In this document: piece by piece, positions 1 to 16,442 of the stretch
Numbering within the stretch: position 1 is the first letter of the stretch
Layout of the letters: every line of letters starts with the position of its first letter
IMG/VR virus record: IMGVR_UViG_3300031251_000004
Coordinates: 1-64,000 of that record
Length of the DNA stretch: 64,000 bases
From: a virus
Reading direction: 5' to 3' (one strand)
Translations under genes and position numbers: made by a program
The notes under the pieces: generated by a model
What the model was told of the DNA's origin: nothing
The model's input: only the letters and a program-made list of their open reading frames with translations
Database searches by the model: none

Positions 1-89
1 TATGCGAGCATGCGCGCTTCCACACGCAACCTGCTTACTTCCAACGCTTCCAACGTTGTTTGACCCGTTGTCATGACAAGCGCTTTCAT
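1..89 (-). CDS. Partial minus-strand ORF cut by window start
   Basis: The ATG at 89 overlaps the TGA of the small upstream gene (ATGA). The frame stays open to base 1, giving 29 residues that begin MKALVMTTGQ. The C-terminus lies outside the window. No family is recognised. The tight overlap suggests translational coupling with the 27-residue ORF before it. Confidence 0.5.
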   Translation of the reverse strand, partial: MKALVMTTGQTTLEALEVSRLRVEARMLA

Positions 90-169
90 CGGCTCACCAT
101 GTAGTAAACAAGAAACATCCAACCACACCACGCTAATACATGTGGGGTAATGTATGCAATCTTAGACAT
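86..169 (-). CDS. Very small predicted membrane protein (27 aa)
   Basis: This is a 27-residue ORF preceded by a strong Shine-Dalgarno (AAAGGAGA, 6 bases before ATG). It lies downstream of a conserved leader stem-loop. Residues 11-24 are hydrophobic and aromatic (VLAWCGWMFLVYYM), consistent with one membrane-spanning helix, followed by VSR. Its stop overlaps the next start. The ribosome-binding site and conserved leader argue that it is translated. The function is unknown. Confidence 0.5.
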   Translation of the reverse strand: MSKIAYITPHVLAWCGWMFLVYYMVSR

Positions 170-197
170 TGCAGTCTCCTTTGCTGAATTATCCAAC

Positions 198-229
198 AAT
201 ATCCTACACATATGACTGTATAGGATATT
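198..229 (-). promoter_or_regulatory. Conserved leader stem-loop, copy 1
   Basis: Read on the minus strand: TCTGCTAATATCC, a variable loop containing TCATA, then GGATATTGTTGG. It begins about 17 bases after the stop of the 247-750 gene and ends before the Shine-Dalgarno of the 27-residue gene. TGCTAATAT resembles an extended -10 promoter hexamer lying on the 5' arm of the stem. The same layout occurs at 1138, 2098 and, in diverged form, 2748. Confidence 0.6.
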
Positions 230-246
230 AGCAGATACGTCAGTTA

Positions 247-750
247 TTAGTAGCCTAATGCACGAGCCCAGCGACTAACACCCACCATGTCGGTTCCGAA
301 GAACTTTTTAGCGATTGACTCGGCAAAGGTATTCAATTCCTTTTTCCACGGATCCGTACCAAGTGCGATATCTGCCATAACTGGCATACACTGGTCGCCT
401 GCTTTCCGACGACCGTGGAAACATGCAAGCCTATGCACGTATGTAGCACGACGTAGGTTCCTATCGTTGCTCTGAAAGGCTTTCGTACTTGTCATCGTTG
501 ACCGCATACGGTACTTATCGCCCTTACCAGTAGTCATAAGTGATGTAATCGCCTCGTAGTCAGGCTCAGCGAAGAAGCCTTCGCCCTTACAGCCATTGCA
601 GACTTCCCACTTGTCGGGATATGTAGTCCCTTCGTATGTGAATCCCGCACGGAAGTTCTTTTTCTCACCTTTGCACCGAGTGCAAGGACGAGGCTCAGCA
701 TGTATGCTGATGTCTGGAACCATTCCTTCTTCTTCGTCGTAATCGTACAT
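247..750 (-). CDS. Zinc-finger hypothetical protein, DnaJ-like cysteine motifs
   Basis: This is a 167-residue protein with a good ribosome-binding site (GGAGG, 7 bases before ATG). Residues 23-26 (CTRC) and 51-54 (CNGC), each followed by KGE, form a pair of CxxC knuckles. They resemble a single zinc site of the DnaJ cysteine-rich domain (CxxCxGxG type). The N-terminus is acidic (YDYDEEE) and the C-terminal two thirds are basic and unassigned. A nucleic-acid or protein-binding role is an inference from the zinc knuckle only. It follows the 52-residue gene by about 15 bases. Confidence 0.6.
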   Translation of the reverse strand: MYDYDEEEGMVPDISIHAEPRPCTRCKGEKKNFRAGFTYEGTTYPDKWEVCNGCKGEGFFAEPDYEAITSLMTTGKGDKYRMRSTMTSTKAFQSNDRNLRRATYVHRLACFHGRRKAGDQCMPVMADIALGTDPWKKELNTFAESIAKKFFGTDMVGVSRWARALGY

Positions 751-765
751 GTGTGTTTCCTCCGC

Positions 766-924
766 TTATCGCTTGACTTTGCGTAGTTGTCTACGAACCA
801 GAGCACATACCACATCTTGTAGGCTAAGCCACATCATGTAGTTAGTTTCGTTCGGATTCTTCTTATACGCTTGCATACAACTATTAGCATGTTCGCGCAT
901 GATATGAATGATGTTATCTTGCAT
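766..924 (-). CDS. Small hypothetical protein (52 aa)
   Basis: The start is placed at the ATG at 924. It overlaps the upstream TAA stop as TAATG and has GGA seven bases before it, which suggests coupled translation. In-frame alternatives are an ATG at 936 and a GTG at 957. The protein is rich in Met, Asn and Gln with a basic tail (RRQLRKVKR). It is unrecognised and appears to belong to the same transcription unit as its neighbours. Confidence 0.45.
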   Translation of the reverse strand: MQDNIIHIMREHANSCMQAYKKNPNETNYMMWLSLQDVVCALVRRQLRKVKR

Positions 925-1112
925 TACAGGATCCATATTCCAAGTTTCGTCGCACACTTGACCACTTCATCGCCGAATGCAAGAATAGCATCGTTCAACT
1001 TATCGCCGACGACAATGTGTGCGTATTCAAGCACGGCATCCGATGAAAGGAAAAGACTTCCGTTGTCGGATACAACGCATTGTGCTAGTAGATATGCGCT
1101 AATGGGGTTCAT
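924..1112 (-). CDS. Small hypothetical protein (62 aa)
   Basis: It starts at the ATG at 1112, preceded by a very strong Shine-Dalgarno (CAGGAGGT, 7 bases). The second copy of the conserved leader stem-loop lies just upstream. An in-frame extension to 1340 is possible but crosses that leader, so the short form is preferred. The sequence (MNPISAYLLA..., ending KLGIWIL) has no recognised motif. Function unknown. Confidence 0.55.
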   Translation of the reverse strand: MNPISAYLLAQCVVSDNGSLFLSSDAVLEYAHIVVGDKLNDAILAFGDEVVKCATKLGIWIL

Positions 1113-1137
1113 TGTCTTACCTCCTGAATTGTCCAAC

Positions 1138-1166
1138 AATATCCCACACTTGTCATATGGGATATT
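1138..1166 (-). promoter_or_regulatory. Conserved leader stem-loop, copy 2
   Basis: It sits about 10 bases after the stop of the 1177-1506 gene and just before the Shine-Dalgarno of the 924-1112 gene. The minus strand reads GCTGACATGTCTGCTAATATCCC, loop, GGGATATTGTTGG. Relative to copy 1 the stem pair TCCTA/TAGGA is replaced by TCCCA/TGGGA. That is a compensatory change supporting a selected hairpin. Confidence 0.6.
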
Positions 1167-1176
1167 AGCAGACATG

Positions 1177-1506
1177 TCAGCCAGTTGGAATGATTGTATT
1201 GCGATCGTTCTCATATCGCGTATACTCGTACTTCGGCTCACGAAGTATACTTTGCACCTTGCCGTCCCCCTCGTAGCATTCCACGCATGTATCCGGGCGA
1301 CGATCTTCTTTGGGAGAACACATGATAGAGAACTCCACATGGCATTCCATACATGTATGCTTGTAGAGCTGAGGTGTCATGTAGGTGTCGAGCACAATGT
1401 CTGCAAGTTTGCGCAGATCGTCCCGCAATGTAAGCAGATCGACCGCCTGTGAGTCCATGAGGGCAGCGACATACCTTTTGAGTGCAATTCGTTTACCAAT
1501 ATCCAT
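1177..1506 (-). CDS. CxxC zinc-knuckle hypothetical protein
   Basis: The start is set at the ATG at 1506 because GAGGAGGT lies 8 bases upstream. The longer ORF from 1524 lacks such a site. The protein has 109 residues. Two cysteine pairs, CMEC around residues 52-55 and CVEC around 74-77, look like a single zinc ribbon. A charged C-terminus follows. A degenerate hairpin (CCTCATGTG/CATATGGGG, 1527-1550) occupies its leader in place of the conserved element. Function unknown. Confidence 0.55.
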   Translation of the reverse strand: MDIGKRIALKRYVAALMDSQAVDLLTLRDDLRKLADIVLDTYMTPQLYKHTCMECHVEFSIMCSPKEDRRPDTCVECYEGDGKVQSILREPKYEYTRYENDRNTIIPTG

Positions 1507-1526
1507 TGTCGTATACCTCCTCACAA

Positions 1527-1550
1527 CCCCATATGATTACTCACATGAGG
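1527..1550 (-). promoter_or_regulatory. Degenerate leader hairpin
   Basis: The minus strand reads CCTCATGTG, a six-base loop, then CATATGGGG. All nine positions pair if G-U is allowed. It is placed like the conserved leader stem-loops, directly before a strong Shine-Dalgarno, but it lacks the TCTGCTAATATCC prefix. Confidence 0.35.
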
Positions 1551-1613
1551 CTGTATGTAGGATATGACACTTTCTCTGGGGGCGATCAATACTTTTCCCC
1601 CTAATAAGACCAC

Positions 1614-2063
1614 TTATCGGTTAAGGCAGGACGTATCCACACAAGGGTTAGGATCGTGCGACTTGCGGTTGAACCTTCCTGCTTTGACTTCACCCTCCCA
1701 CTGTTCCCACCAATCTCCCCCATCCGATGACAGCTTGTCCACATTGACCCACCGAGAATCCCTGCCTGCGGCATGTAGTTCCTGTAGACCTACCAGAGCA
1801 CCATTCTCCACAAAGAGACAGAAGGTGCGATTGCTCTCACAATCCGTGACGACGTGTTCCATTGTCTTACTTTTCAGGGTGTTGACACTCAATTCTTTTC
1901 GCACCTTATCCCGTAAGGTATTCAAGTTAGCAATGCCCTTTTTCATTGTGGCAATCAGTTTAGTAGCGCCGGAATCTTTGATTGTTTCCAGCGTTTCGTT
2001 AGCTTCCACAATACGTTGCATAAGCGCACCTTGTAGGATAAAGAGTTCTTGACGAGTAAACAT
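1614..2063 (-). CDS. Hypothetical protein, predicted helical N-terminus
   Basis: This is a 149-residue protein with the Shine-Dalgarno AAAGGAC 6 bases before ATG. The third conserved leader stem-loop lies 35 bases upstream. Residues 1-65 are predicted to be amphipathic helix (LFILQGALMQRIVEANETLE then a Lys-rich stretch). The C-terminal half is Trp/Gly-rich (GGDWWEQWEGEVKAGRF) and may be a small compact domain. No family is recognised. Confidence 0.55.
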   Translation of the reverse strand: MFTRQELFILQGALMQRIVEANETLETIKDSGATKLIATMKKGIANLNTLRDKVRKELSVNTLKSKTMEHVVTDCESNRTFCLFVENGALVGLQELHAAGRDSRWVNVDKLSSDGGDWWEQWEGEVKAGRFNRKSHDPNPCVDTSCLNR

Positions 2064-2097
2064 GCCGTTGTCCTTTCATTGTATGAAAAACCCCAAC

Positions 2098-2129
2098 AAT
2101 ATCCCATACCTATGACAGTGTGGGATATT
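2098..2129 (-). promoter_or_regulatory. Conserved leader stem-loop, copy 3
   Basis: The minus strand reads TCTGCTAATATCCCACAC, the loop TGTCATAG, then GTATGGGATATTGTTGG. It is positioned between the stop of the 2156-2695 gene and the start of the 1614-2063 gene. It has a 12-bp stem with one wobble and the shared TCATA loop. Confidence 0.6.
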
Positions 2130-2155
2130 AGCAGAGCCGTTCTTACTTGTGTGGC

Positions 2156-2695
2156 TTAGACAGACAGTGGGATGGCAATGTGCGACACGTTCTTCTGTTT
2201 CGCGATGCTTCGCCCATCGATCTTCAAGCCAAGATCGTGCAGTTTTTTGACCATGACACTCGGGTTAGACGTGCCAAGGATGCCTTGCAACGCTTCCACT
2301 GGCACCTTTGCCGTAGCATCGAACGCGCCCAAACGAGCCTTCAAGCTCGCACTAAGAGCATCGTACTCTGCCTTTTCCGCACGCGCCGTTGCCATGTAGG
2401 TTTCGAGCACCTTGCTGAGTGCATGTCGCACCTTCTGCTCGGCTTCGTTCTTCGCGCGTTGCTGTACCGTTGCAAGTGCGTTGATTGCCCGCACACACAC
2501 GGAGCCGATCTGGTCGAATGTAAGCGTCTCGAAGCTCGTCGGCAGATGCTCACCCTTGCCGGCATCCCAGCACAAGGTGTGCAAGGTGCGCAGGCATTCG
2601 GTGATGGTAGCAATCTGCTCACCGTTCAGCACCTTTGCCGTCTTGGTGGTCTCTTGTGCGACAGCGGCGACAGTTGCGGTATTGATGGTATCCAT
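2156..2695 (-). CDS. Hypothetical protein, mainly helical (179 aa)
   Basis: The start is set at the ATG at 2695, which has the Shine-Dalgarno TAGGAGAT 8 bases upstream. The in-frame extension to 2788 crosses the leader element. The protein is Ala-rich and probably helical: residues 75-125 form a long charged helix (KNEAEQKVRHALSKV...). The C-terminal segment has alternating hydrophobic residues (LHDLGLKIDGRSIAKQ). It is unrecognised. It is the largest gene of the GC-rich block, and its codons are much richer in G and C than those of genes after 5149. Confidence 0.55.
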   Translation of the reverse strand: MDTINTATVAAVAQETTKTAKVLNGEQIATITECLRTLHTLCWDAGKGEHLPTSFETLTFDQIGSVCVRAINALATVQQRAKNEAEQKVRHALSKVLETYMATARAEKAEYDALSASLKARLGAFDATAKVPVEALQGILGTSNPSVMVKKLHDLGLKIDGRSIAKQKNVSHIAIPLSV

Positions 2696-2747
2696 GTGGG
2701 TGTATCTCCTATGTTGTGTTGTTTGACCTTCGAGCTTATTGCCCGAC

Positions 2748-2779
2748 AATGTATGCAAGACTATGATCTTACACACATT
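2748..2779 (-). promoter_or_regulatory. Conserved leader stem-loop, copy 4 (diverged)
   Basis: The minus strand reads TCTGCTAATGTGTGTAAG, the loop ATCATAG, then CTTGCATACATTGTCGG. The TCTGCTAAT prefix, the TCATA loop and the terminal ATTGTYGG are kept. Most stem bases have changed on both sides and pairing is preserved (10 of 12 pairs), the strongest evidence that structure is selected. Confidence 0.55.
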
Positions 2780-2795
2780 AGCAGACACTCAAGCC

Positions 2796-2984
2796 TTACA
2801 GGATGAAGCTCTTTTCAGTGTATTCTTTCGTCTTAGCTCGTTTCCCGCTAAGTCTCTTGGTAGCCTTGCCGCTCATTCCTACCCTATGCGTCATATGGTA
2901 GCGAATGTCCCGTATCTGCTTACTTGTGAGTGCCTTGCAGACTTCGCAAAGGCAATTGCTTGATTGTAGAATTAGACACTTCAT
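2796..2984 (-). CDS. Small basic hypothetical protein (62 aa)
   Basis: The ATG at 2984 follows directly after the TGA of the 41-residue ORF, with GGGTGGA as a plausible ribosome-binding site. Two cysteines (CLCEVC, residues 11-16) precede a strongly basic C-terminal half (KATKRLSGKRAKTKEYTEKS). Nucleic-acid binding is possible on charge alone. No family is recognised. Confidence 0.45.
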   Translation of the reverse strand: MKCLILQSSNCLCEVCKALTSKQIRDIRYHMTHRVGMSGKATKRLSGKRAKTKEYTEKSFIL

Positions 2985-3110
2985 TCATCCACCCTTGTGC
3001 AGCCATCGGCTACTTGTAAACGTATGCCGTAGTTTCTTGCTCGGGCGCACACCACCTTTCCAGTGTGCTACATGTGCTCTCTTGAAGGTTAGCCGTTTCT
3101 TCTTTGCCAC
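2985..3110 (-). CDS. Very basic 41-residue ORF with GTG start
   Basis: A GTG at 3110 is preceded by GGAG at 5 bases. Codons run to a TGA that abuts the next ATG. The protein begins VAKKKRLTFKRAHVAHW and is about one third Lys, Arg or His, with three Trp/Gly-rich turns, consistent with an RNA- or DNA-binding peptide. Upstream hairpins at 3132-3174 sit in its leader. No ATG is available in frame before the preceding TAG. Confidence 0.4.
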   Translation of the reverse strand: MAKKKRLTFKRAHVAHWKGGVRPSKKLRHTFTSSRWLHKGG

Positions 3111-3131
3111 CTTGGCTCCGATCTCTTCAGT

Positions 3132-3174
3132 GTGCGCCTAACGCACATACCGCCCTAACAGTGTTAGGAGCGGT
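3132..3174 (-). promoter_or_regulatory. Two leader hairpins upstream of the 41-aa ORF
   Basis: The first is GTGCG-TTAGG-CGCAC (3132-3146). The second is ACCGC-CCTAAC-AGT-GTTAGG-A-GCGGT (3149-3174), eleven pairs with one bulged base. They lie in the leader of the small basic gene, but their sequence is not that of the TCTGCTAATATCC family. Confidence 0.4.
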
Positions 3175-4450
3175 TTCGATCTTGCCGACGTTGTTAGCGT
3201 CTAGCCGGTATAGGCTACTTGTGATAGCCGTATGGTATAGTATTAGATTGTGGTATTATCTGCTTTCTTTGCACTCGCGCCTAGCGTTTCTTACTTCCCT
3301 ATCTCGTCGCGCTTTGGCTTACACTATCACTTTCCGCTATCAGAGCCGATAATGTAGTCTAGTTGCTTCCCTTGGGAATACAACGACAACATTGTGGCAT
3401 AAGCGGGGACCATGTAAGACAATCGCCGAACCGTAGAATAAACCTTCTAGGTGCGATATGTCGTATCGTTAGAATAGAGACTGTCTACTAGGTACACTTC
3501 CGATATTAGCGACTTTGCCTTACCTATCTTACCTACAGCGACTAGACCTTACAAGGTCATACCCCAAGGGGTATTGGTCGGCACTGTAGCGGGATAAGGC
3601 TTTCAGACTGCTTGCCAGTCTTCGCCCTGCTAAAACGGGTATTCCGTCGTATGCTCTACCTTAGGCGACATGTGGCAGACCCACACCGTTCTAAGGTTTC
3701 TAACGCTAGTGTAGGAGCTACCTACTTGTTCCGTTTCCCCGCTAGCTACTGCGGGGTGCTATCTAGAGAGAACGGCGGGCTTTGGAATTACTTTAGCCTC
3801 GCGGAAGTCTTTTTTTCTTCCTACCGTTCACTCTCGACAATTAGGGTACATTGCAGGAGGGATGCCAAGCTTTGGGCAGTGCTAACTATATGATATCATT
3901 AGGGCGCCGCTGGCACGGCTTGCACGCTACGCAACGGTTTGCGGTGTGATGATGTGTGTATTGAATGATCTCATAGAGTTAGGAGACAAGAAAGGTTTGC
4001 GGGGTAGGCTACTTTTTGCAGAGTAAGCAGGGATCGCTACCAGGGCGCCCAGCAACGGCTAGGGAAGCGTTAGGGGTGCCACGGGCAAGGCGAGCTAGCA
4101 GGATGCGTCTGGCGCCATTGTGGCGACTGGAAACGGGCATTGCGCCCAGTGGTGCCAGCACTCGAAGGGGAGCTCTGCAAGGATGTGGGATAATGTAGGG
4201 GGCGGGAGCTCCTCGAAGAAGGTAGTAGTTGCTTGGAGCATAGTGTAGGCGGAGGCAAACTGTATGCCAATGTTATGGATCGTTTCTTGAATTAGCAAAG
4301 ACCATGCCAAGGTGCTAGCATGTTTCTTGCAAGGTTCAGGTGGGAGACTTGAATACAGCAGTCGCTGAACATCCTACATACTGAACGGACAGTAAGTGTT
4401 GAACCTATGATCATATAGGTGGGGTGAGCGGTATTGTATGTGGTATGATG
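3175..4450. other. GC-rich hairpin-rich region without a convincing gene
   Basis: No reading frame here combines a ribosome-binding site with plausible protein composition on either strand. Local inverted repeats are frequent: GACCTT-AC-AAGGTC (3545-3558), TACCCC-AA-GGGGTA (3560-3573), CCCCGC-8 bases-GCGGGG (3737-3756), GGGC-ATTGC-GCCC (near 4137) and two GAGCTC-centred repeats about 4160 and 4207. Base composition is clearly richer in G and C than the rest of the window. It may encode a structured RNA or be a control region; neither is shown. Confidence 0.4.
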
Positions 4451-4454
4451 TAGC

Positions 4455-4486
4455 GCTTCGCTTGAGCGAAGCTTTTAGGCTTCGCT
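4455..4486 (+). terminator. Triple GCTTCGCT/AGCGAAGC hairpin with T-run
   Basis: GCTTCGCT-TG-AGCGAAGC is followed by TTTTAG and then a third arm, GCTTCGCT. The first two arms plus TTTT look like a rho-independent terminator on the plus strand. The second and third arms could pair instead, so the site could switch between two structures or act in both directions. No plus-strand gene is seen upstream. Confidence 0.4.
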
Positions 4487-4498
4487 CTAGTATAATAG

Positions 4499-4576
4499 TT
4501 GAGCGATCAAGTGCCGATCATGCTTAGGTCATGTATAGATCATGCTTAGGTGTAGTATGGATCATTGAGCGGTCAA
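4499..4576. repeat. Iteron-like direct repeats
   Basis: GATCATGCTTAGGT occurs at 4516-4529 and 4538-4551, a 22-bp spacing. A third partial GATCATT is at 4560. The set is flanked by TTGAGCGATCAA (4499-4510) and TTGAGCGGTCAA (4565-4576), each itself a TTGA/TCAA inverted repeat. Phased repeats of this kind are typical of protein-binding control regions. Confidence 0.45.
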
Positions 4577-4639
4577 TGTATTACATGTAGGGCGAATAGC
4601 CAGTAGTAAACGTCTCAACTACACTGTCTTACCTGAACA

Positions 4640-5010
4640 GCATGTGGGATGATAGAGGGAGATGTTTGGAATGGTATGGAGGAATTACAGTGGAAACGGG
4701 GGCATAGTTCTTGGGGGTTGTCGGGGATGGTGGGGAGGAGTAGGATAGTTGAATAGGAATAACGATGGGGAAATGTAGGGAGAGGTGGGAGCTGTTCAGG
4801 TGATGTGGTGTAGGGGAGACGGGGAGGGGATGGGAGGAATAATACATTGTGATTGAATGTATTGAAAGATAGGGGAATTGATTACATTGTGGAATAATGT
4901 AAAAGATGTAATATGTTGTAATGAATTGTAGGAAAGGCTGTAGGGTAAGAGGGGGTAATGTAGGGAAACGTCGCGTGATGTGTTGTGGTGTAGGGGGATG
5001 TAGGCGGGCT
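4640..5010 (+). other. Strongly G-rich, C-poor non-coding stretch with G-quadruplex motif
   Basis: The plus strand is dominated by G runs and TGTAGGG-like words. GGGG-AGAC-GGGG-A-GGGG-AT-GGG at 4813-4834 meets the usual intramolecular G-quadruplex pattern with loops of 4, 1 and 2. A looser set of four G runs spans 4698-4735. An open minus-strand frame across it (4629-5039) encodes only Pro/Ser/Thr/His/Tyr low-complexity sequence and is judged a by-product of the skew. Confidence 0.5.
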
Positions 5011-5023
5011 CCCCCAGCTACTA

Positions 5024-5141
5024 AAACGTCCCAAAACAATAATCAAAACATAATCAAAACGTATTATACAGCAATCTCAAACGTATTCTATACAATAGTT
5101 AAAACGTGTTCTATACCACTAATACACAATCAAAACATAAT
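5024..5141. repeat. AT-rich iteron-like repeats beside skew flip
   Basis: AAACGTATTATAC (5057-5069), AAACGTATTCTATAC (5079-5093) and AAACGTGTTCTATAC (5102-5116) repeat every 22-23 bases. A further AAACGT is at 5024. AATCAAAACATAAT flanks them at 5041-5054 and 5128-5141. The plus strand is almost free of G here, the reverse of the preceding stretch. Confidence 0.5.
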
Positions 5142-5148
5142 AACAACA

Positions 5149-5391
5149 CTACATCAACAACATCAACTTATCTAACCGCTCTTCCGTTATCTCCAATGGT
5201 AATAAATAATTCAACACAAAACTTGATTTATACCAATAAATATCATAACAATTATAATCAATAAATGTTCGCTCCTCTGACATATTCCAAGTAATACAAC
5301 TATTATTAAAAATAACTTGATATATATTTTTACCCAATTTACACACACTATTGTTAGGGTTGACTTGTATAAGTCTTTCTAATATATTCAT
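5149..5391 (-). CDS. Small hypothetical protein with DKLMLLM tail
   Basis: This is an 80-residue protein rich in Asn, Tyr and Ile. It ends ITEERLDKLMLLM. That tail resembles the ITEEEADKYR endings of the tandem pair at 8388-8965 and the DKLLLLI endings of other small proteins in this block. Its ATG overlaps the TGA of the upstream gene by 4 bases, so the two are probably co-translated. No known family is recognised. Confidence 0.6.
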   Translation of the reverse strand: MNILERLIQVNPNNSVCKLGKNIYQVIFNNSCITWNMSEERTFIDYNCYDIYWYKSSFVLNYLLPLEITEERLDKLMLLM

Positions 5392-5690
5392 CCTATACTC
5401 AACAACTTCTCTATATCAACCTTATACATCTCAAACTGGGTATTCAATAGATCTTCCGCTGCTTCTCTATATAATATATCATCATTCAATAAAAACTGAA
5501 CCATTGCAATCTTGAACTCTTTTATATTATTCGATATAATATAAACAGTTAATTCATACAGCATATGCTCTTGAATATAAGCATATTGTTCATTCTCTAT
5601 TCTATCATAATGTCTATGTGTTGATATTCCAGCTAGATCTAAATCTTTATCCATAAATCCTTTATTATAATGACATAACATTATAAACAA
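5388..5690 (-). CDS. Small helical hypothetical protein, LLI-tail family
   Basis: This is a 100-residue, mainly helical protein ending YKVDIEKLLSIG. The region ISNNIKEFKIAMVQFLL followed by a second helix can be matched loosely to the N-terminal part of other small proteins here (NDRVKTYIL at 6866, SDRIKVFIV at 9244). No Shine-Dalgarno is seen before the ATG at 5690; the leader is A/T-rich. An internal ATG at 5654 is an alternative start. Function unknown. Confidence 0.55.
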   Translation of the reverse strand: MFIMLCHYNKGFMDKDLDLAGISTHRHYDRIENEQYAYIQEHMLYELTVYIISNNIKEFKIAMVQFLLNDDILYREAAEDLLNTQFEMYKVDIEKLLSIG

Positions 5691-5769
5691 AACATATAAA
5701 AACTTTTATCAATTTCTAATTGGTACCAAAATTACGTTTGGATCTCTATTATTCTTATAAGATATTTCC

Positions 5770-6846
5770 TTATAATCCAACAGCTTTAGAAAACTCTGCC
5801 ACAGCTTTACGATATTTATTAGGGTTAAATTGTTTTAGGATATTGAACATATTACTATGATTTAGCATTTCTGATGCAGATCCGAAAGAATTTGTAATGT
5901 TATCCCATTCAACCTCTCTTTGTTCTTTAGTTTTGAGGGATTTGGTTTTGATATTATGTTTGAAGATTGGTATAAGTTTTTGTTCCATTAGATCGAAGAA
6001 CCGTTGTACTGGAATATGTCTTACCCAAGCAAGCATATAATCTCTATGAAATGAGGCTGGGACTAATGTTTTATATTGATTGAATTGATGAACTGAGTCT
6101 GTGAGATTGGTATAGAACTCTTCATCTGCTAGTACGTGTTCTTTATTAGATATACCAACAGTGGAACTTAGATCTTCATCATATTTTGTATCTCGGATCT
6201 TTTTGGATGGTAATCCTCCCATTTGATTTATCATATATTTTATAAATGACTGCATAAAATGTTGTAGTTCATGTCTCGCTAGACTTTTTACATCTTCAAT
6301 TTTATATTGTAATGTTTCTAACGTTCTCACATATTTGAGACTTTTGTCGACATCTTCTTTAATTACTATCCTACCTATAAGGATCTCATTTTTATCATTT
6401 ATATGGTTTTGGAGTCTTGGTTGCCACAACCCGCGGGAATTCACATTTTCTGCAAAGAACATTTCAGATGACTTATCGTCGTTAGCAAAGATCAATATAA
6501 TTTTGAATACAGAATTTGCTGCAGCTTTTGGAGCATATGGTATATCAGAACCTTTAATTCTAATAGATTTTCTTGATTTATCTTCGGCTGAGATATTGGC
6601 TGATAGTCTTTTACAATATCCATAGCATATTTTTATATCATCAAGCTGATCTTGACTTACTTTTTGACGTTGTTTTTTATTTAAATTTTTATAATTTTGT
6701 AATATAGTTTTATATTTTTCCGCCATAAAGAAACAATACGTGCCAACAGCAAAATCTTCTATCTCTTTGAGAGTATTTTGTGGAACTTGAAGAAGCCCGG
6801 CTTGTTTTTGAAACGCGATTGCTTTATTTAAGAGATCATGATACAT
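5770..6846 (-). CDS. HExxH zinc metalloprotease-like protein
   Basis: This is a 358-residue protein with a zincin motif RHELQH (residues 191-196; His192, Glu193 and His196). A candidate third ligand lies about 47 residues later, in HVLADEEFYTN. The N-terminal 20 residues (LLNKAIAFQKQAGLL) resemble the short amphipathic starts of the 11285 and 30203 proteins, which begin AKKFEKLA and LATKFEKQA. A role in processing a virion or host protein is inferred. Substrate and localisation are unknown. No Shine-Dalgarno is visible. Confidence 0.6.
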   Translation of the reverse strand: MYHDLLNKAIAFQKQAGLLQVPQNTLKEIEDFAVGTYCFFMAEKYKTILQNYKNLNKKQRQKVSQDQLDDIKICYGYCKRLSANISAEDKSRKSIRIKGSDIPYAPKAAANSVFKIILIFANDDKSSEMFFAENVNSRGLWQPRLQNHINDKNEILIGRIVIKEDVDKSLKYVRTLETLQYKIEDVKSLARHELQHFMQSFIKYMINQMGGLPSKKIRDTKYDEDLSSTVGISNKEHVLADEEFYTNLTDSVHQFNQYKTLVPASFHRDYMLAWVRHIPVQRFFDLMEQKLIPIFKHNIKTKSLKTKEQREVEWDNITNSFGSASEMLNHSNMFNILKQFNPNKYRKAVAEFSKAVGL

Positions 6847-6865
6847 ATAAATAAATGGTAAAATA

Positions 6866-7147
6866 TTACATCAGTAAAAGGGTTATATTATATATATCTA
6901 AAAAATCTGGGAAGTAGTTTATGATTGCTAAATAGCAGTATTCTATTTTATCATTATACTTAGATGAGAGGCATTTTAGAATATAAGTTTTGACTCTATC
7001 ATTATCATAGCAGCGTTCTAGTTCTTGTTTTGAATGTATGATATAGCAAGTTGCAGATGAAGGGTTATTATATAACGCGGTATTTGCGGAGTTCATCCAA
7101 CAGGAATTACATGGTTTTGATGGAAGGAGATCTTTGCAGGTTTTCAT
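6866..7147 (-). CDS. Small Cys-containing hypothetical protein, LLI-tail family
   Basis: The start at 7147 gives 93 residues; an in-frame ATG at 7180 would add 11. It begins MKTCKDLLPSKPCNSCW, a CxxC pair, and ends FPDFLDIYNITLLLM, matching the small-protein tails of this block. The start overlaps the upstream gene by about 40 bases, an unusually long overlap, and there is no clear Shine-Dalgarno. Function unknown. Confidence 0.5.
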   Translation of the reverse strand: MKTCKDLLPSKPCNSCWMNSANTALYNNPSSATCYIIHSKQELERCYDNDRVKTYILKCLSSKYNDKIEYCYLAIINYFPDFLDIYNITLLLM

Positions 7148-7820
7148 TATTATATTGATTGAATACTTTAATGAATGCAAGACTAATAGTAATGAGGGAT
7201 TTCTTATTAGATTTAGATAGTTTGAATATCTTTGAATGTTCTTTATTTAGGAATACCATACCGGTTGACAGATATGCTTGAGTTTCATCGATGAAAACTT
7301 TTTTTGTATAGCCTTTGATTTTTAGCCAATGATTGATTTGATTTTGAATGTTTGCTGGTATAGTTTTAACAAGCTTTGTCATAATGGTTTTATAGGATTT
7401 ATTTGTATAGAAGAGTCCGTGTGCTATTTCATGATTTAATGTATTTTTATCATTCTTTGATGCGCCGATAATGTAGAAGTTTTGGGAGGATTTTTTACAA
7501 TGCATGTAGATATTGAGCATCTCATAATCATATATATTCCGATCTGGAATGAGATTGTTATGAACATTTGGGATTATATAATCTGGAATATTGAAGCCTG
7601 ACCAATCGGATGTATATGTAAAATTACCATTGCCATATTTCTTTGAATACCAGCGGATGAAAGAAAGAATGGAGAAAGACTTATTGCGGAACTTAGTGGA
7701 TGGAGATTCATAGAACTCTTGATAGCGTAGGAAGTGCATACAGAGATCGTATTGATCTGAGAACTCTAAGTAAAATATATTTGGTTTGATTTCTTTTAGG
7801 GAATATTTTGCGGTTTTCAT
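7107..7820 (-). CDS. HExxH zinc metallopeptidase-like protein
   Basis: This is a 237-residue protein. NHEIAHGLFY (residues 129-138) carries HExxH, with His130, Glu131 and His134. FIDETQAYLSTG (177-188) gives Glu179 as the likely third zinc ligand, about 45 residues downstream, as in small zincin domains. It overlaps the upstream gene by 4 bases. Together with the 5770 protein it forms a pair of predicted metalloproteases within 1 kb. Sequence outside the active site differs, so they are at most distant relatives. Confidence 0.6.
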   Translation of the reverse strand: MKTAKYSLKEIKPNIFYLEFSDQYDLCMHFLRYQEFYESPSTKFRNKSFSILSFIRWYSKKYGNGNFTYTSDWSGFNIPDYIIPNVHNNLIPDRNIYDYEMLNIYMHCKKSSQNFYIIGASKNDKNTLNHEIAHGLFYTNKSYKTIMTKLVKTIPANIQNQINHWLKIKGYTKKVFIDETQAYLSTGMVFLNKEHSKIFKLSKSNKKSLITISLAFIKVFNQYNNENLQRSPSIKTM

Positions 7821-8083
7821 ATTAGGAGAGATATCTTGTCTAAGTATTCGCTGTATTCTGGTTTATATAGTTTTATTGCTTCTTTTAGATATATAAAATA
7901 ATTGCCTTCGAAGCCTTCTGTTTTTATGGTTGATGCAAGGGATGCTTTTATATTTTCCCAAGATTCGAATTCATTACCCCACCATTCGATCCAGCATATG
8001 GACTGATGTAATTTTACCATTGGATGAGCTGACTTGAACGAACATACATAGCAGAGAGATATATTTAGAGATTTACATAGCAT
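7817..8083 (-). CDS. Small hypothetical protein with Cys/Trp-rich N-terminus, LLI tail
   Basis: This is an 88-residue protein. The N-terminal part (LCYVCSFKSAHP, then SICWIEWWG) contains a CxxC and several Trp residues. The C-terminal part EAIKLYKPEYSEYLDKISLLI follows the AI-x(5)-P-x-[YF]...LDK-x-x-LLI pattern shared with the 8962 and 6866 proteins. There is no Shine-Dalgarno. It is transcribed divergently from the HNH gene at 8100, with only 16 bases between the two starts. Confidence 0.55.
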   Translation of the reverse strand: MLCKSLNISLCYVCSFKSAHPMVKLHQSICWIEWWGNEFESWENIKASLASTIKTEGFEGNYFIYLKEAIKLYKPEYSEYLDKISLLI

Positions 8084-8099
8084 TGTTATATTATGTTAT

Positions 8100-8396
8100 A
8101 TGAGAAAAGTTGTTATTGAGTATGTGAAAAAAGGTTTGAGAAGAATGTGGGGAAAGAGTTTGCAACGTAATGGTGCGTTGAAGAGTGCTAAGGTTGAGAG
8201 GGGGAAGTATCGGTGTGCATGTTGCGGTAAGGTATTTAGGCGGAAGGATATAGAGGTTGATCATAAGGTTGCTGTTGGGAGATTTATTGATTTTGACACA
8301 TATGTAGAAAGACTATTCTGTGATACAAAAGGGCTTCAGGTATTATGCCGATTGTGTCATAAAAACAAAACTAAAAAAGACATAAAATCATTTTAG
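8100..8396 (+). CDS. HNH endonuclease
   Basis: This is a 98-residue HNH protein: CACCGK (39-44), IEVDH (51-55, the catalytic His following Asp), then LQVLCRLCHKNKT (79-91) with the second zinc pair and the last His. The domain order is standard for small phage HNH nucleases. It is the only plus-strand gene between 5149 and 11968 and its 3' end overlaps the convergent 8388 gene by 9 bases. This fits a free-standing mobile (homing-type) nuclease inserted between minus-strand genes, although a packaging-associated HNH cannot be excluded. Confidence 0.8.
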   Translation: MRKVVIEYVKKGLRRMWGKSLQRNGALKSAKVERGKYRCACCGKVFRRKDIEVDHKVAVGRFIDFDTYVERLFCDTKGLQVLCRLCHKNKTKKDIKSF

Positions 8397-8672
8397 CATT
8401 CTATATTTATCTGCTTCCTCTTCGGTTATAGATTGGAAAATAATTCCGCCAATGGAAAAGAACGGCATATCGTTTTCAGACCTTCCGGACATAATGACAG
8501 AGCCGGTTGCAGAAGTTAACGGTCTAAGCATATCTACATAATCTTTCAATGGTATAATAAAATTAGTTTTTTGTGAATATTGAATATATTCAAGAATATC
8601 TCGCATTAAAATTCCAGCATTACTAACATCAACTGCTTTTTTTATTACATCTAAATCAACATATGTTTTCAT
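8388..8672 (-). CDS. Tandem paralogue A, ITEEEADKYR tail
   Basis: This 94-residue protein is closely related to the adjacent 8669-8965 product. Both have a YVDLD/YIDED start, a KDY motif mid-protein, DMP[FY]FSI and an ITEEEADKYR[MI]LK ending. The start overlaps the paralogue's stop by 4 bases. No known family is recognised. The conserved C-terminal strand-plus-helix suggests a small folded domain. Confidence 0.65.
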   Translation of the reverse strand: MKTYVDLDVIKKAVDVSNAGILMRDILEYIQYSQKTNFIIPLKDYVDMLRPLTSATGSVIMSGRSENDMPFFSIGGIIFQSITEEEADKYRMLK

Positions 8673-8965
8673 TTTAATATCCTGTACTTATCCGCTTCCT
8701 CTTCCGTAATCATTGTGAATGTTATTCCTGCGATAGAAAAATATGGCATATCATCTTTTGTTCTACCAAACGTAGCAGATCTAATGATATGATTAAGACT
8801 ACTACCACGATAACTATCATTGACTATTTTGATATAATCTTTAGCTGATAAAAGAAAATCATAGTCTCCAGTAATTTCAGCATAGCTAAATATAGCATAT
8901 ATTGAATATGTTTCATTTGTTTGAATTATTTTATCAATAATATCTTCATCTATATATTTTTTCAT
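8669..8965 (-). CDS. Tandem paralogue B, ITEEEADKYR tail
   Basis: This is a 98-residue tandem duplicate of the 8388-8672 product. The C-terminal 27 residues are nearly identical in pattern (DMPYFSIAGITFTMITEEEA...), while the N-terminal 60 residues have diverged. It overlaps its neighbours by 4 bases on both sides, so it belongs to one polycistronic unit. Function unknown. Confidence 0.65.
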   Translation of the reverse strand: MKKYIDEDIIDKIIQTNETYSIYAIFSYAEITGDYDFLLSAKDYIKIVNDSYRGSSLNHIIRSATFGRTKDDMPYFSIAGITFTMITEEEADKYRILK

Positions 8966-9198
8966 ATTAGCAGCAATAATTTATCTAAATCTTCTTTTAG
9001 ATGTGGAAAATCTGTATTGATTACTTCGATTGCATATTCTACCATTGGAATTCCGCTATCATTTCCAATCATATGGAAAGATGAGATCATTGCGCGCATT
9101 GTGATTTTTTGCTGTTCAATATCTTTTGCGTCGTACATAGTTTTGCATATTGATTTTTTGAAGTTTTTGATTAGTGTTTGGATTTTTGTGTTAGCCAT
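8962..9198 (-). CDS. Small helical hypothetical protein with DLDKLLLLI tail
   Basis: This is a 78-residue, fully helical-looking protein. The basic N-terminus (TLIKNFKKSICK) is followed by MVEYAIEVINTDFPHLKEDLD and the tail KLLLLI. That C-terminal block aligns by eye with the ends of the 7817 and 6866 proteins. The start lacks a Shine-Dalgarno but has TATAATC directly before ATG. Function unknown. Confidence 0.55.
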   Translation of the reverse strand: MANTKIQTLIKNFKKSICKTMYDAKDIEQQKITMRAMISSFHMIGNDSGIPMVEYAIEVINTDFPHLKEDLDKLLLLI

Positions 9199-9243
9199 GA
9201 TTATAATGTATATTCTGTTGGTGTTATTGTAAGTGGCGGAAAA

Positions 9244-9468
9244 TTAAATTAATATAAGAAGCTTTCTAAAAGATTCCTCTAAATGTTTATAATAGTAGGT
9301 TGCAACGTCAAGTAGATCAGATGCAGATTCGCTGTATTGTTTTATATAAACAATGAATACTTTAATTCTATCTGAATCCTCAGTACAATCAATAAGATCT
9401 GCTGCAAGTTTGTATAAAATAACATCATCCCATATACCTATTATTTGATTCATTATATATTTTTTCAT
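9244..9468 (-). CDS. Small helical hypothetical protein with FRKLLILI tail
   Basis: This is a 74-residue protein. DSDRIKVFIVYIKQY in the middle resembles NDRVKTYILKCL of the 6866 protein, and it ends HLEESFRKLLILI. The start overlaps the TGA of the upstream CPxC paralogue by 4 bases. It is probably a member of the same rapidly diverging family as its neighbours. Function unknown. Confidence 0.55.
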   Translation of the reverse strand: MKKYIMNQIIGIWDDVILYKLAADLIDCTEDSDRIKVFIVYIKQYSESASDLLDVATYYYKHLEESFRKLLILI

Positions 9469-10043
9469 GCCAGAAGTAGAATAGAATTGATTTTGGAAAA
9501 TATTTTTTCTTTATTGGAAAAATCAAACTTTTCAAAAGGTATATATGGTATTTTTACGGATCTAAATGTTGCTTTCTTTAGTGTGTTTCCGTTGCTTGTA
9601 AGTAAGCTAGACGCTCTAGTATTGTAGTTATTTATAATAATGTATTGAATATCGTCATATGTAAAGCCAAAATGTTCCATATATGGTTCAGATGAAAAAG
9701 AGCTTTTCGTTCTATCATAAAAAATATTAATAGATCTACTGAACGAATTTGGATATACCGCGCACCATGTGCAATCTTTTTGTAAAAAGATATTGAGATC
9801 GTATAGAGAGACAAACTGATTTGCGGAGTTTGTATATAATATATTACCATTTATAATAGAAAGAGAGAACTCAAACACATCTAGATTTGGTTCTACAAAA
9901 TAATCGCTTTTCATAGATATTGTTATTTTATTTTTTGCTACTAGTATTTTATGTGCTTGATTGGAGGAGACATCCAGGCTGTGATGGCAGAATGGACAAT
10001 TTTTATATTCATCTATGAATTGTTTTAGATTCATGTTATTCAT
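9465..10043 (-). CDS. CPxC-motif paralogue 1
   Basis: This 192-residue protein is one of three consecutive relatives. The N-terminus is FIDEYKNCPFCHHSL (CPFC, residues 16-19). An internal second pair (CTWC, about 92-95) could complete a zinc site. The C-terminus is FDFSNKEKIFSKINSILLLA. The ending FDFS-x(4)-I-x-x-KI-x-[SI]-I-x-LL recurs in the next two genes. The start overlaps the upstream stop by 8 bases; an ATG at 10034 is an alternative. Function unknown. Confidence 0.6.
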   Translation of the reverse strand: MNNMNLKQFIDEYKNCPFCHHSLDVSSNQAHKILVAKNKITISMKSDYFVEPNLDVFEFSLSIINGNILYTNSANQFVSLYDLNIFLQKDCTWCAVYPNSFSRSINIFYDRTKSSFSSEPYMEHFGFTYDDIQYIIINNYNTRASSLLTSNGNTLKKATFRSVKIPYIPFEKFDFSNKEKIFSKINSILLLA

Positions 10044-10731
10044 CTGCGAGAAGGAAAATTGAATTTATTCTGGAGGATACTTTTTTGGGATTATCAAAAC
10101 TGAAGTAATCATCATTGACTAAATTAATTCTTTTTTCTTTATAGGATTTGTTTGATCCATCAATATTAGCTTCTGCAACGGAGAAAGAGGTTTTAGATAT
10201 GTTGTAATCATTTATAATATTTATAACATTCCCTTCTTTATTTTCGAAAATATTATATAATTTATAAATCTCATGATATATATCAATATATTTGATATTG
10301 AAACTAAACTGTTCATCTTTTTCGTCTTTTGGACAATAATCATCATCGGCTGAAAAATCTCCAACTGCGAGATATTTATGTGGGAAAGTAGTATTATCAC
10401 AATAAATTTGTAAATCGAAGATGCACGAGCTATTTGTATAGTGCCCGAATATTGTATTGTTTGGTATATCTATTGTTGTGAATAGCTTTTTAATTGGAAC
10501 TAGTTTGGTAGTTGTAGGTTTAAATTCTTCTACAATGGTTTCTTGTTTAACATTTTCTAATGTAATATCAAAAGATATTTGCAATGAACCAGTTAACCCT
10601 ACATTACTAAAATCATTATTATTACCAAATATTGTATTTGATATTTTATAAGTTAATTCATTTGAGCATATTGGGCAATTGGTTCGATACTCTATTAGTT
10701 TAGAAAATGTTTCAAATTCTCGTGATGGCAT
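10036..10731 (-). CDS. CPxC-motif paralogue 2
   Basis: This 231-residue protein begins FSKLIEYRTNCPICSNELTY (CPIC, residues 19-22) and ends KKVSSRINSIFLLADE. The middle region is acidic and Asn/Tyr-rich with no recognised motif, and includes DDDYCPKDEKDE. It is longer than the flanking paralogues because of a Thr/Lys-rich insert near residue 65. It is probably a secreted-or-cytosolic zinc protein of unknown role; no signal peptide is visible. Confidence 0.6.
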   Translation of the reverse strand: MPSREFETFSKLIEYRTNCPICSNELTYKISNTIFGNNNDFSNVGLTGSLQISFDITLENVKQETIVEEFKPTTTKLVPIKKLFTTIDIPNNTIFGHYTNSSCIFDLQIYCDNTTFPHKYLAVGDFSADDDYCPKDEKDEQFSFNIKYIDIYHEIYKLYNIFENKEGNVINIINDYNISKTSFSVAEANIDGSNKSYKEKRINLVNDDYFSFDNPKKVSSRINSIFLLADE

Positions 10732-10732
10732 T

Positions 10733-11263
10733 TTATCCTAAAAGCTGTATAATTTTTAATTTTTTATCTATTGCTTTTTTTGAAGAAAAATCAAAATCAA
10801 TTACTGGTAATGTTATTAATTTAGTAAAATAGTTTACTGTTATGTGTATGGTTGACAGCGAGTTTGTAAAATCGTTATTTACTGCCATATGTACCGAATC
10901 TGGCATCATTCTGATGAAGTGGATTTTCTCAAGCATTATACTATCTATATATAGAAGATTTTTTAATAAATTACAAGTGCCGGAATAAAAAAAATGATAT
11001 TTGCGACATTGGCGACCAATAATTAATTTAGATGAGTTTTTGCAATTATTATAATTATAATTTTCCGTGATTTTATTGTTGAATAAATTTATTGAAAACT
11101 CATTAAACAATGATGCCGGTAAAAGATTTAGGTTGTTATTATCTAAGCTACCTGACAGGAACCCGGCAAATGTAATTGTTGGCTCAGTGCGTTTTTTGCA
11201 CAAGGGGCAAAATTCTATATAATTAAAAAAATCGAATAAGTTATTAAATTGTTGAACTACCAC
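10733..11263 (-). CDS. CPxC-motif paralogue 3
   Basis: This is a 176-residue protein with a GTG start at 11263. It begins NLFDFFNYIEFCPLCKKRTE (CPLC, residues 19-22) and has further cysteines around residues 75-96 (NCKN, QCRKYHF, GTCN). It ends FDFSSKKAIDKKLKIIQLLG. As in the other two members, a one-zinc N-terminal knuckle, a beta-rich middle and a helical FDFS tail are predicted. The leader has TATATACTTTTAA and no Shine-Dalgarno. Confidence 0.6.
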   Translation of the reverse strand: MVVQQFNNLFDFFNYIEFCPLCKKRTEPTITFAGFLSGSLDNNNLNLLPASLFNEFSINLFNNKITENYNYNNCKNSSKLIIGRQCRKYHFFYSGTCNLLKNLLYIDSIMLEKIHFIRMMPDSVHMAVNNDFTNSLSTIHITVNYFTKLITLPVIDFDFSSKKAIDKKLKIIQLLG

Positions 11264-11284
11264 TTAAAAGTATATATCAATAAA

Positions 11285-11968
11285 TTATACTGTTGGTACT
11301 TCGTGTTCTCTTATTCTTTCAATAAGTTTTGGTAATGGTAGGTTTTCGAAATTATATTTTGTTTTGAATGCGTCTAATGCTTTTTGTGTTTCCGGTCCTA
11401 AGATACCATCTGGTGGTTCTTTTAGTGGAAAGATATCACCAGTTGGAACTAAAATTTTATTTAGTTTAGTTTGAACGTCTTTTGGAATTGATGGATATTT
11501 TGATTTTGATGGAGTAATTTTAAGTTCTGGGACTTGAACTGTTGACTCTTGTTGTGGCGCTGGAACTGATGGTTGTTTAGCCGATTGAGCTTTTAATGAA
11601 TCTATGAATGGCATCAAATTTTTTGTGGCAAAATTTATTGTATTTTGGTTTTTTGATTTTGTTAAAACTTGATATATTTTTGTTGCCGTATCTGCTAGGT
11701 TTTGGAATGATAGTTCACCTTGAGGATATCTTAGGGAACTATATAGATTACGTGCTTCGGCAGGGAAATTGGCTTGGTCGGCAGTCCACTGATTAGTTAA
11801 CAATTTTACAAGTGCTTTTCTGGCAGGTTCTGTTGAACTTGCTGTTTGAGATGTTTTGTTGAATTTTTTATCAAATTTATTAGCTAATGTGATCGATTTA
11901 GAAAAATCGTATTCTTTATTAGCAGTAGCTAGTTTTTCAAATTTTTTAGCTTTATCAAATAAATCCAT
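11285..11968 (-). CDS. Peptidoglycan-binding-like domain protein
   Basis: The start at 11968 is chosen because AGGAGA lies 8 bases upstream. The protein has 227 residues. The N-terminus MDLFDKAKKFEKLATA is a short amphipathic helix of the type seen in virion-associated proteins of large phages. A Pro/Gln-rich linker follows around 130-150. The C-terminal DGILGPETQKALDAFKTKYN matches the PG_binding_1 signature (DGxxGPxTxxAxxxFQ). A role in the tail or virion contacting the cell wall is inferred; no catalytic domain is present. Confidence 0.65.
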   Translation of the reverse strand: MDLFDKAKKFEKLATANKEYDFSKSITLANKFDKKFNKTSQTASSTEPARKALVKLLTNQWTADQANFPAEARNLYSSLRYPQGELSFQNLADTATKIYQVLTKSKNQNTINFATKNLMPFIDSLKAQSAKQPSVPAPQQESTVQVPELKITPSKSKYPSIPKDVQTKLNKILVPTGDIFPLKEPPDGILGPETQKALDAFKTKYNFENLPLPKLIERIREHEVPTV

Positions 11969-12004
11969 AACAAAATCTCCTATTGACTCGATATGAGTCT
12001 GCAA

Positions 12005-12118
12005 TTATAATACAGTATTATTCCCAAAGAATATTATATCAGATCTAGTGAAAATTATTTATATTTTATTATGTTGACAGCTTTTAGCTAAGACTTAAAT
12101 TGTATGAGAGGCAAATAA
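12005..12118. promoter_or_regulatory. Divergent intergenic region
   Basis: This AT-rich spacer lies between divergent genes. TGTATTATAAT on the minus strand (about 12010-12020) is a -10-like element for the 11285 gene. TTGACA at 12073 on the plus strand is a good -35 match upstream of the 12119 gene; a clear -10 at 17-18 bases is not obvious (TTAAAT at about 12095). Confidence 0.35.
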
Positions 12119-13087
12119 ATGAACAACTACTCGTTTGAAAATTATATAATGCAATGTTGCAAATCTCGTGAATGGAATTTACGGAAGTTTCTAAAAAAGA
12201 AATTAATTGATGCTGGATTCAGAATTATAGAAGATGACTACTCATCTTATAGAAAGGGCAAGTATCAGCAAGTACATAACCTCTTAGCTATAAGAGGAGA
12301 GCCAAGGATATGCTTGGTAGCACACACTGATGTTTGTAGAGATCATGGTAATGATATACCAGATGTTAATCCAGTAATAAAAACAATGGAAATTGATGAT
12401 GAGCTGAAACAAATAATTCAAGATAAAGATTGTGATGTTCAAGTTGGCGGTGATGATAGGCTTGGTGTTGCAATAAACAGTTGGATAGCATTAAATACAG
12501 GATATGATTTAGGGTTGTTATTTACGACAGATGAAGAGGTAGGTGTTGTCAGCGCTGAATATGTTCATTTTCCAGAACTATTGGATTTTGATCTTTTATT
12601 ACAAGTTGATCGTGGTAATAGATCTCATCAATTAGTAAATAGTATTGGCGGAGAACAATTGTGTTCATATGTTACAGCTAATAGATTGATACAAATATCA
12701 AAAAATATAAATCATCCTCGTTATATTGTTGATGGTATGTTGACAGATGTTTTAGCACTGAAAATGAATCATATGTGTAAGGACGCTGTAAATATGACTT
12801 GTGGATACCATAATTCAATTGGTGCTCAGAGAAATGAATATATTGATATACAGGAAGCAAAAGATACAATGCAGTATGTTTCAAGTATAATTCAATACTA
12901 TGATCTGAGAGAAGATGAAAATGAATCTAATGGTATAATTGAAAAAGATGTGTGGGAAGAATCATCATACACTCGTACAGAGACTATATATTCCAATGAA
13001 TTAAGGGGACGTGCTAAGAGCATAGGATATACAGATGATGATTTATTTAGTGAGGATAGGTATAATGATGACAGAGGGTATAGGTAG
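12119..13087 (+). CDS. M20/M28-type di-zinc peptidase-like protein
   Basis: This is a 322-residue protein with the full ligand set of co-catalytic zinc peptidases: VAHTD (His69, Asp71), GGDDRLG (110-116, bridging Asp), TTDEEVG (catalytic Glu139 and ligand Glu140), VDRG (Asp164) and GYHN (His231). The family removes N-terminal residues from peptides or deacylates small molecules. The fold core is present without an obvious dimerisation insert. The last 55 residues are acidic and unrelated. AGAGG precedes ATG. It is an unusual enzyme for a phage; the substrate is unknown. Confidence 0.75.
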   Translation: MNNYSFENYIMQCCKSREWNLRKFLKKKLIDAGFRIIEDDYSSYRKGKYQQVHNLLAIRGEPRICLVAHTDVCRDHGNDIPDVNPVIKTMEIDDELKQIIQDKDCDVQVGGDDRLGVAINSWIALNTGYDLGLLFTTDEEVGVVSAEYVHFPELLDFDLLLQVDRGNRSHQLVNSIGGEQLCSYVTANRLIQISKNINHPRYIVDGMLTDVLALKMNHMCKDAVNMTCGYHNSIGAQRNEYIDIQEAKDTMQYVSSIIQYYDLREDENESNGIIEKDVWEESSYTRTETIYSNELRGRAKSIGYTDDDLFSEDRYNDDRGYR

Positions 13088-13089
13088 GA

Positions 13090-16435: not shown

Positions 16436-16442
16436 GGCACAT

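What the first reader, a model, noticed from the sequence alone, without database searches (positions are those of the whole stretch)
198..2779. Family of four structured leader elements in front of small genes
Copies at 198-229, 1138-1166, 2098-2129 and 2748-2779 share, on the minus strand, TCTGCTAATATCC, a TCATA loop and GGATATTGTTGG. Each lies right after one gene's stop and before the next gene's ribosome-binding site. Stem pairs change together (TCCTA/TAGGA versus TCCCA/TGGGA, and most of the stem in copy 4), so the fold is selected. TGCTAATAT looks like an extended -10 on the stem's 5' arm. The layout recalls the promoter-plus-stem-loop cassettes described between genes of T4-type phages, but the sequence is not one I know.
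Basis: partly seen in the sequence, partly recalled or inferred. Interest (0 to 1): 0.68.

Follow-up and report, generated by a model that had tools for sequence, protein, structure and literature searches.

The report
Phage hairpins marking early gene boundaries
A giant phage places the same kind of long, irregular RNA hairpin right after the stop codons of its small early genes; the fold is kept while the letters change, so it is a working RNA part, most likely a spot where the long phage message is cut into single-gene pieces.

Summary
The four copies are real and extend beyond the coordinates given. Each is a ~57-66 nt irregular hairpin on the minus strand: a lower helix (3-6 bp), a small internal loop, a ~6-bp helix, a C.U mismatch set in a fixed UCUG-C-U / G-U-YGG core, then a 13-15 bp helix. 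Two collinear phage records (133 kb and 406 kb) supplied 11 more clear copies, plus one found by covariance model and several divergent ones. Over 14 distinct sequences 97.8% of pair cells form a standard pair and 12 of 16 pairs show double compensatory changes (0/500 shuffles). G.U cells outnumber A.C cells 45 to 0, so the minus-strand RNA is what is selected. All copies start 2-18 nt after a stop codon. They occur only in the GC-rich early-gene block. The promoter reading fails: the -10-like letters change while pairing is kept. Most likely function: intercistronic processing and 3'-end hairpins of the T7 RNase III-site type, sitting at borders of shuffled gene cassettes. A hammerhead-like structure replaces the hairpin at one such border in the 406-kb relative. 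No cleavage was measured. Beside the elements lie a type II hammerhead candidate and a ~700-nt structured RNA with no Rfam match.

The parts
184..243 (-). Copy w1: P1 CTGA/TCAG, P2 TATCTG/TGGATA, C.U mismatch, P3 14 bp, 6-nt loop
   Evidence: 9 nt after the stop of ORF 247-750, 21 nt before ATG at 169
1124..1180 (-). Copy w2: P1 CTGA/TCAG (its 3' strand abuts the Shine-Dalgarno AGGAGG), P2 TGTCTG/TGGACA, C.U mismatch, P3 13 bp, 5-nt loop
   Evidence: 2 nt after the stop of ORF 1177-1506, 18 nt before ATG at 1112
2081..2146 (-). Copy w3: lower helix GTA.GAA/TTC.TAC, P2 GGCTCTG/TGGGGTT, C.U mismatch, P3 with one mismatch, 6-nt loop
   Evidence: 18 nt after the stop of ORF 2156-2695, 27 nt before ATG at 2063
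2733..2795 (-). Copy w4: lower helix around GCTT/AAGC, P2 TGTCTG/CGGGCA, C.U mismatch, P3 15 bp with mostly different letters, 4-nt loop
   Evidence: 8 nt after the stop of ORF 2796-2984, 45 nt before ATG at 2695
1522..1555 (-). Further intercistronic hairpin without the core (TACAGCCTCATGTGAG/...TGGGGTTGTG), just before the Shine-Dalgarno of ORF 1177-1506; counterpart in G001 at 1218
3120..3181 (-). Type II hammerhead ribozyme candidate (GAAA ... GUA^ ... CUGAAGA, stem II GAUC/GAUC), upstream of ORF 2985-3110
   Evidence: orthologues in G001 and G002 differ in the core only at N7 (A/C/G); not recognised by Rfam RF02276
3120..3838 (-). Conserved ~700-nt structured non-coding RNA ending in the hammerhead candidate
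   Evidence: 208 predicted pairs, 24 with a double compensatory change over 3 sequences; no Rfam match
2156..2695 (-). 179-aa ORF between w4 and w3, conserved in G001 and G002; no family assigned

Best explanation
The elements are intercistronic RNA hairpins in a polycistronic transcript of small phage genes. Each folds just after a stop codon into a ~25-bp irregular duplex and marks the gene border for endonucleolytic processing, most likely by the host's RNase III, as at the hairpins of the T7 early region. The cut would leave a stable hairpin at the 3' end of the upstream mRNA and a free Shine-Dalgarno on the downstream one. The C.U mismatch set in G.Y / U.G wobble pairs, or the small internal loop below, would position the enzyme. 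The borders also serve as junctions at which gene cassettes and whole stems have been swapped between related phages. Shown: fold, strand, covariation, position after stop codons, confinement to the GC-rich early-gene block, cassette rearrangement between hairpins. Inferred: polycistronic early transcription, cleavage, the enzyme, and the stabilising effect.
For: 14 distinct copies: 97.8% of cells paired, 12 of 16 pairs with double changes, 53 double-change cells versus 17 in shuffles, 0/500. The 11 copies found by sequence or by eye give 98.3% paired and 34 double-change cells versus a shuffle maximum of 17; G.U 45, A.C 0. All MFE folds give the same tiers, and sense is always more stable than antisense, by 4.1-23.6 kcal/mol. 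Each copy tested starts 2-18 nt after a stop codon on the same strand. No U-tract terminator was called at the four elements. T7 R1.1, the standard RNase III substrate, is a 60-nt hairpin with a 4/5-nt internal loop between T7 genes 1.0 and 1.1 (PMC6121014). E. coli RNase III also cuts between genes in polycistronic mRNA (PMC8708148). A good type II hammerhead candidate is intercistronic in G002 at 43929. At the border after the 179-aa gene, G000 and G001 carry the hairpin where G002 carries a hammerhead-like structure, which suggests that cleavage is what the border needs.
Against: No transcript or cleavage data. The near-invariant core (C7, U8 and G27 in 14/14, G6 in 13/14) asks for more than generic RNase III recognition and could mark a protein-binding site. 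None of the three phage records has an RNase III match (PF14622), so the enzyme would have to be the host's, and the host is unknown. In two copies the C.U mismatch is a C-G pair, so the mismatch is not essential. The hammerhead-like structure at the swapped border carries a ~47-nt insertion and may be inactive.
Confidence: 0.5

Rival explanations
1. The hairpins are bound by a specific phage or host RNA-binding protein through the UCUG-C-U / G-U-YGG core and act as operators or stabilisers for the neighbouring genes, with no cleavage.
For: The core letters stay fixed while the helix above changes freely, including a U.G wobble never replaced by U-A or C-G in 14 copies. In two copies (w2, b3) the lower helix touches the Shine-Dalgarno.
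Against: Distance to the downstream start varies from 16 to >80 nt and most copies leave the Shine-Dalgarno free. No candidate protein was identified; the neighbouring ORFs have no convincing family.
Confidence: 0.2
2. The hairpins only protect mRNA 3' ends or pause ribosomes and nucleases, as simple stable 3'-UTR structures.
For: Tight spacing after the upstream stop codon in every copy tested.
Against: Does not explain the fixed core and mismatch, nor the presence of hammerhead structures at equivalent borders.
Confidence: 0.14
3. They are mainly recombination modules (PeSL-like cassettes): homologous hairpins at gene ends let phages swap genes, and transcription or processing effects are secondary.
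For: Gene content between the conserved outer borders differs among the three phages and changes occur at hairpins; G001 has two near-identical 63-nt hairpin blocks (98.4%) in front of different genes; stems are exchanged between borders.
Against: Selection on recombination alone predicts conserved DNA sequence. Here DNA sequence changes while RNA pairing, with G.U in the sense strand only, is kept.
Confidence: 0.1
4. Promoter plus stem-loop, with TGCTAATAT as an extended -10 on the stem's 5' arm.
For: TG-C-TAATAT occurs in 4 of 14 distinct copies, and CTACTAATAT in one more.
Against: The -10-like letters change in the other 9, including loss of the final T in 5; no promoter-like match on the 5' arm of the four elements and no significant excess in the region (8 versus 4.8 +/- 2.4).
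Confidence: 0.04

Closest known systems
RNase III processing hairpins of the phage T7 early region (such as R1.1)
   Same: About 60-nt irregular hairpins with an internal loop, between genes of an early phage operon, on the transcribed strand.
   Different: Unrelated sequence; here a fixed core around a C.U mismatch recurs; cleavage by RNase III not shown; host unknown.
PeSLs (promoter-early-stem-loop cassettes) of T4-type phages (Arbiol 2010; Comeau 2014; known here only through citations and PMC4503421)
   Same: Repeated stem-loops at borders of small genes whose order is shuffled between relatives.
   Different: No conserved promoter and no terminator U-tract; different sequence; the stem covaries as RNA.
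Type II hammerhead ribozymes in phage and bacterial intergenic regions (PMC3088659)
   Same: Occupy the same kind of intercistronic position in the 406-kb relative and lie at the 3' end of the neighbouring ncRNA in all three phages.
   Different: The four elements of the finding lack the CUGANGA/GAAA core and are simple irregular hairpins.

Membership tests
T7-type RNase III processing site | Irregular hairpin of about two helical turns with an internal loop, between genes of a phage operon | tested here: met
   R1.1 described in PMC6121014
T7-type RNase III processing site | Cleaved by RNase III at a mapped position | not testable with these tools
   needs in vitro cleavage or RNA ends; no phage-encoded RNase III found, host unknown
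PeSL cassette | Early (sigma-70-type) promoter fused to the stem-loop | tested here: not met
   -10-like letters not conserved; no promoter-like match on the elements' 5' arms
PeSL cassette | Stem-loop with terminator character (U-tract) | tested here: not met
   none of the four elements scored as terminator-like; only w3 has TTTTT after the stem
PeSL cassette | Located at borders of modules shuffled between related phages | tested here: met
   gene content between conserved outer borders differs in three phages, changes coincide with hairpins
Rfam RNA families | Match above gathering score to any of 4227 families | tested here: not met
   (window) none; none or only chance-level microRNA/snoRNA matches
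Type II hammerhead ribozyme (3120-3181, neighbour) | CUGANGA and GAAA core with stems I and III closed, stem II open, NUH before the cleavage site | tested here: met
   orthologues vary in the core only at N7 and stem II covaries GATC/GATC to GCTC/GAGT
Type II hammerhead ribozyme (3120-3181, neighbour) | Match to Rfam RF02276 | tested here: not met
   no match at E <= 10
Type II hammerhead ribozyme (3120-3181, neighbour) | Self-cleavage | not testable with these tools
   needs in vitro transcription

The most novel reading that the evidence does not exclude
The phage group uses a dedicated gene-border code in which a specific hairpin (fixed C.U core, read by its own phage or host factor) and small self-cleaving ribozymes are interchangeable parts that cut one long early transcript into single-gene messages, next to a new class of large ornate RNA.
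Probability: 0.2. Interest if true: 0.75.

Novelty: new variant of a known kind. Interest (0 to 1): 0.52.

Why it matters
It gives an RNA element with strong covariation support in giant phages, where transcript processing is little studied, and a direct test: do hairpins and ribozymes at equivalent gene borders do the same job? It would also show how giant phages may reshuffle small early genes without breaking their expression.

Tried and rejected
Promoter: rejected, letters not conserved. Intrinsic terminator: rejected, no U-tract except w3. Known Rfam family: none (returning nothing at E <= 10 is itself odd and may reflect filtering). Host-genome repeat: 14 bacterial and archaeal loci matched the pattern, but nearly all lack the long stem and look like chance (L342 has 10 AT-rich pairs, not followed up). 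A looser viral scan returned too many unrelated matches to use. First covariance model R1 was too specific: it missed b4-b6 and matched antisense strands. R2, built from 14 copies, gave no antisense matches and added one core copy in G002 (29195-29236) and divergent ones. R2's match in G004 does not fold into the element. Crude gene calling on all hairpins of five genomes was inconclusive. More distant giant phages (G003, G004, LR756500, LR745206 and 13 others) show no convincing copy. The two PeSL papers could not be read.

Full report
What was checked. The window is bases 1-64000 of a 101,913-base virus record. The first 5 kb have 46-51% G+C, the rest about 28-47%.

Relatives. A pattern scan of IMG/VR found two records with true copies: a 133-kb record (G001, locus L013) and a 406-kb record (G002, locus L016). 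Both are collinear with the window over its left part, and their GC-rich blocks hold the elements. The best outside relatives by ribonucleotide reductase are uncultured giant phages (LR756500, 462 kb; LR745206, 635 kb); these and 15 further related viral records show no convincing copy.

The copies. Clear copies: G000 4; G001 5 (197, 630, 1037, 1464, 2115); G002 6 (46297, 45171, 41210, 30535, 29508, 24356). A covariance model built from them (R2) adds G002 29195-29236 (E about 1e-4) and divergent hairpins near 33236, 33147, 44424 and 41841. In G002 all are between 24 and 47 kb; nothing convincing lies in the remaining ~380 kb.

Anatomy. Independent minimum-energy folds give the same architecture in the 15 clear copies: lower helix P1 (3-6 bp: CTGA/TCAG, TTGA/TCAA, TTGAT/ATCAA, GCTT/AAGC, CCTTG/CAAGG and others, so it covaries too), a small internal loop, P2 (5-7 bp), a 1x1 C.U mismatch, P3 (mostly 13-15 bp), loop of 4-10 nt. 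In b5 and b6 the mismatch is a C-G pair. Fixed letters are the core UCUG-C-U / G-U-YGG; the U.G above the mismatch is kept in 14 of 14.

Is the fold selected? Pair counts over 14 distinct arms: 97.8% of cells paired, 12 of 16 pairs with double changes, 53 double-change cells versus 17.0 +/- 3.3, 0 of 500 shuffles reaching any measure, and slid controls far lower. Because b4-b6 were found by scans that require pairing, the count was repeated on the 11 copies found by sequence or by eye: 98.3%, 34 double-change cells, shuffle maximum 17. There are 45 G.U cells and no A.C cells, and sense folds are always more stable than antisense: RNA from the minus strand is under selection, not the DNA palindrome. 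Copies are related, so shuffle counts are not probabilities.

Position. Each copy tested starts 2-18 nt after a stop codon on its own strand; the next start is usually 16-45 nt downstream with a Shine-Dalgarno, farther in b4 and b7. Hairpins of >=18 bp number 3 in window 1-3200 and 7 in G002 28-48 kb, versus 0.0 in dinucleotide shuffles for both.

Cassettes. Conserved outer frame: ncRNA, two small ORFs, [w4/a5/b1], 179-182-aa ORF, [w3/a4/hammerhead-like], variable genes, [w1/a1/b2], a small ORF of about 27-30 aa. Between these the gene content differs and changes coincide with hairpins. The MKRRPL gene follows hairpin a3 in G001 but the hammerhead-like structure in G002. The 109-aa ORF lies between hairpin 1555 and w2 in G000; its homologue follows a2 in G001 and is followed by a remnant of the 167-aa ORF. 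G001 a2 and a3 are 98.4% identical over 63 nt.

Mechanism. Promoter and terminator readings fail. A ~60-nt irregular hairpin between early genes, on the sense strand, is the anatomy of T7 RNase III sites (PMC6121014). The alternation with hammerhead structures at gene borders points the same way: a cut between genes. This step is inferred. The strongly fixed core leaves room for a specific binding protein. That the block is expressed early is itself an inference from its many small ORFs.

Neighbouring RNA. Just upstream of the first small ORF all three phages carry a type II hammerhead candidate; its core differs only at N7 and stem II covaries. Rfam's RF02276 does not match it, so it rests on the descriptor (0.33 expected per shuffled set) and on conservation. 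It ends a ~700-nt conserved RNA with 208 predicted pairs, 24 with double changes over only three sequences. No Rfam family matches; GOLLD and ROOL are known large phage RNAs (PMC12286853). Only these phages were found to carry it.

Limits. Three genomes from one phage group, no expression data, unknown host, and no metagenome scan available.

Noticed in passing
window 3120-3838 (-); L013 about 2470-3195; G002 about 46630-47400: About 700-nt conserved structured RNA with no Rfam match, 24 double-compensated pairs over three sequences; possibly a new large phage RNA.
   Followed up: partly
window 3120-3181 (-); G001 2532; G002 46695 and 43929: Type II hammerhead ribozyme candidates, the first three orthologous at the 3' end of the large RNA, the fourth between two genes; missed by Rfam's model.
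   Followed up: partly
G002 about 45545-45660 (L029 17545-17660, -): Hammerhead-like structure interrupted by a ~47-nt insertion flanked by direct repeats of TGATGA, at a border where the other two phages have the hairpin.
   Followed up: partly
G002 44461 and 41878 (-); window 1555, G001 1218 (-): Two further intercistronic hairpin types without the core (GACAATATCTC.../...GTATTGTCGTGG; CCTCATG.../...ATGGGG before the Shine-Dalgarno).
   Followed up: partly
window 1-5000 versus 5000-20000: Sharp drop in G+C (about 49% to 31%) near 5 kb, seen at the corresponding place in both relatives; in the 406-kb phage the GC-rich block spans about 48 kb.
   Followed up: no
window 5770-11300 (-): Minus-strand genes here are C-rich on the coding strand, opposite to the skew of other gene blocks in this genome.
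   Followed up: no
window 58261-60759 (-): Ribonucleotide reductase closest (47-48%) to uncultured giant phages LR756500 and LR745206.
   Followed up: partly
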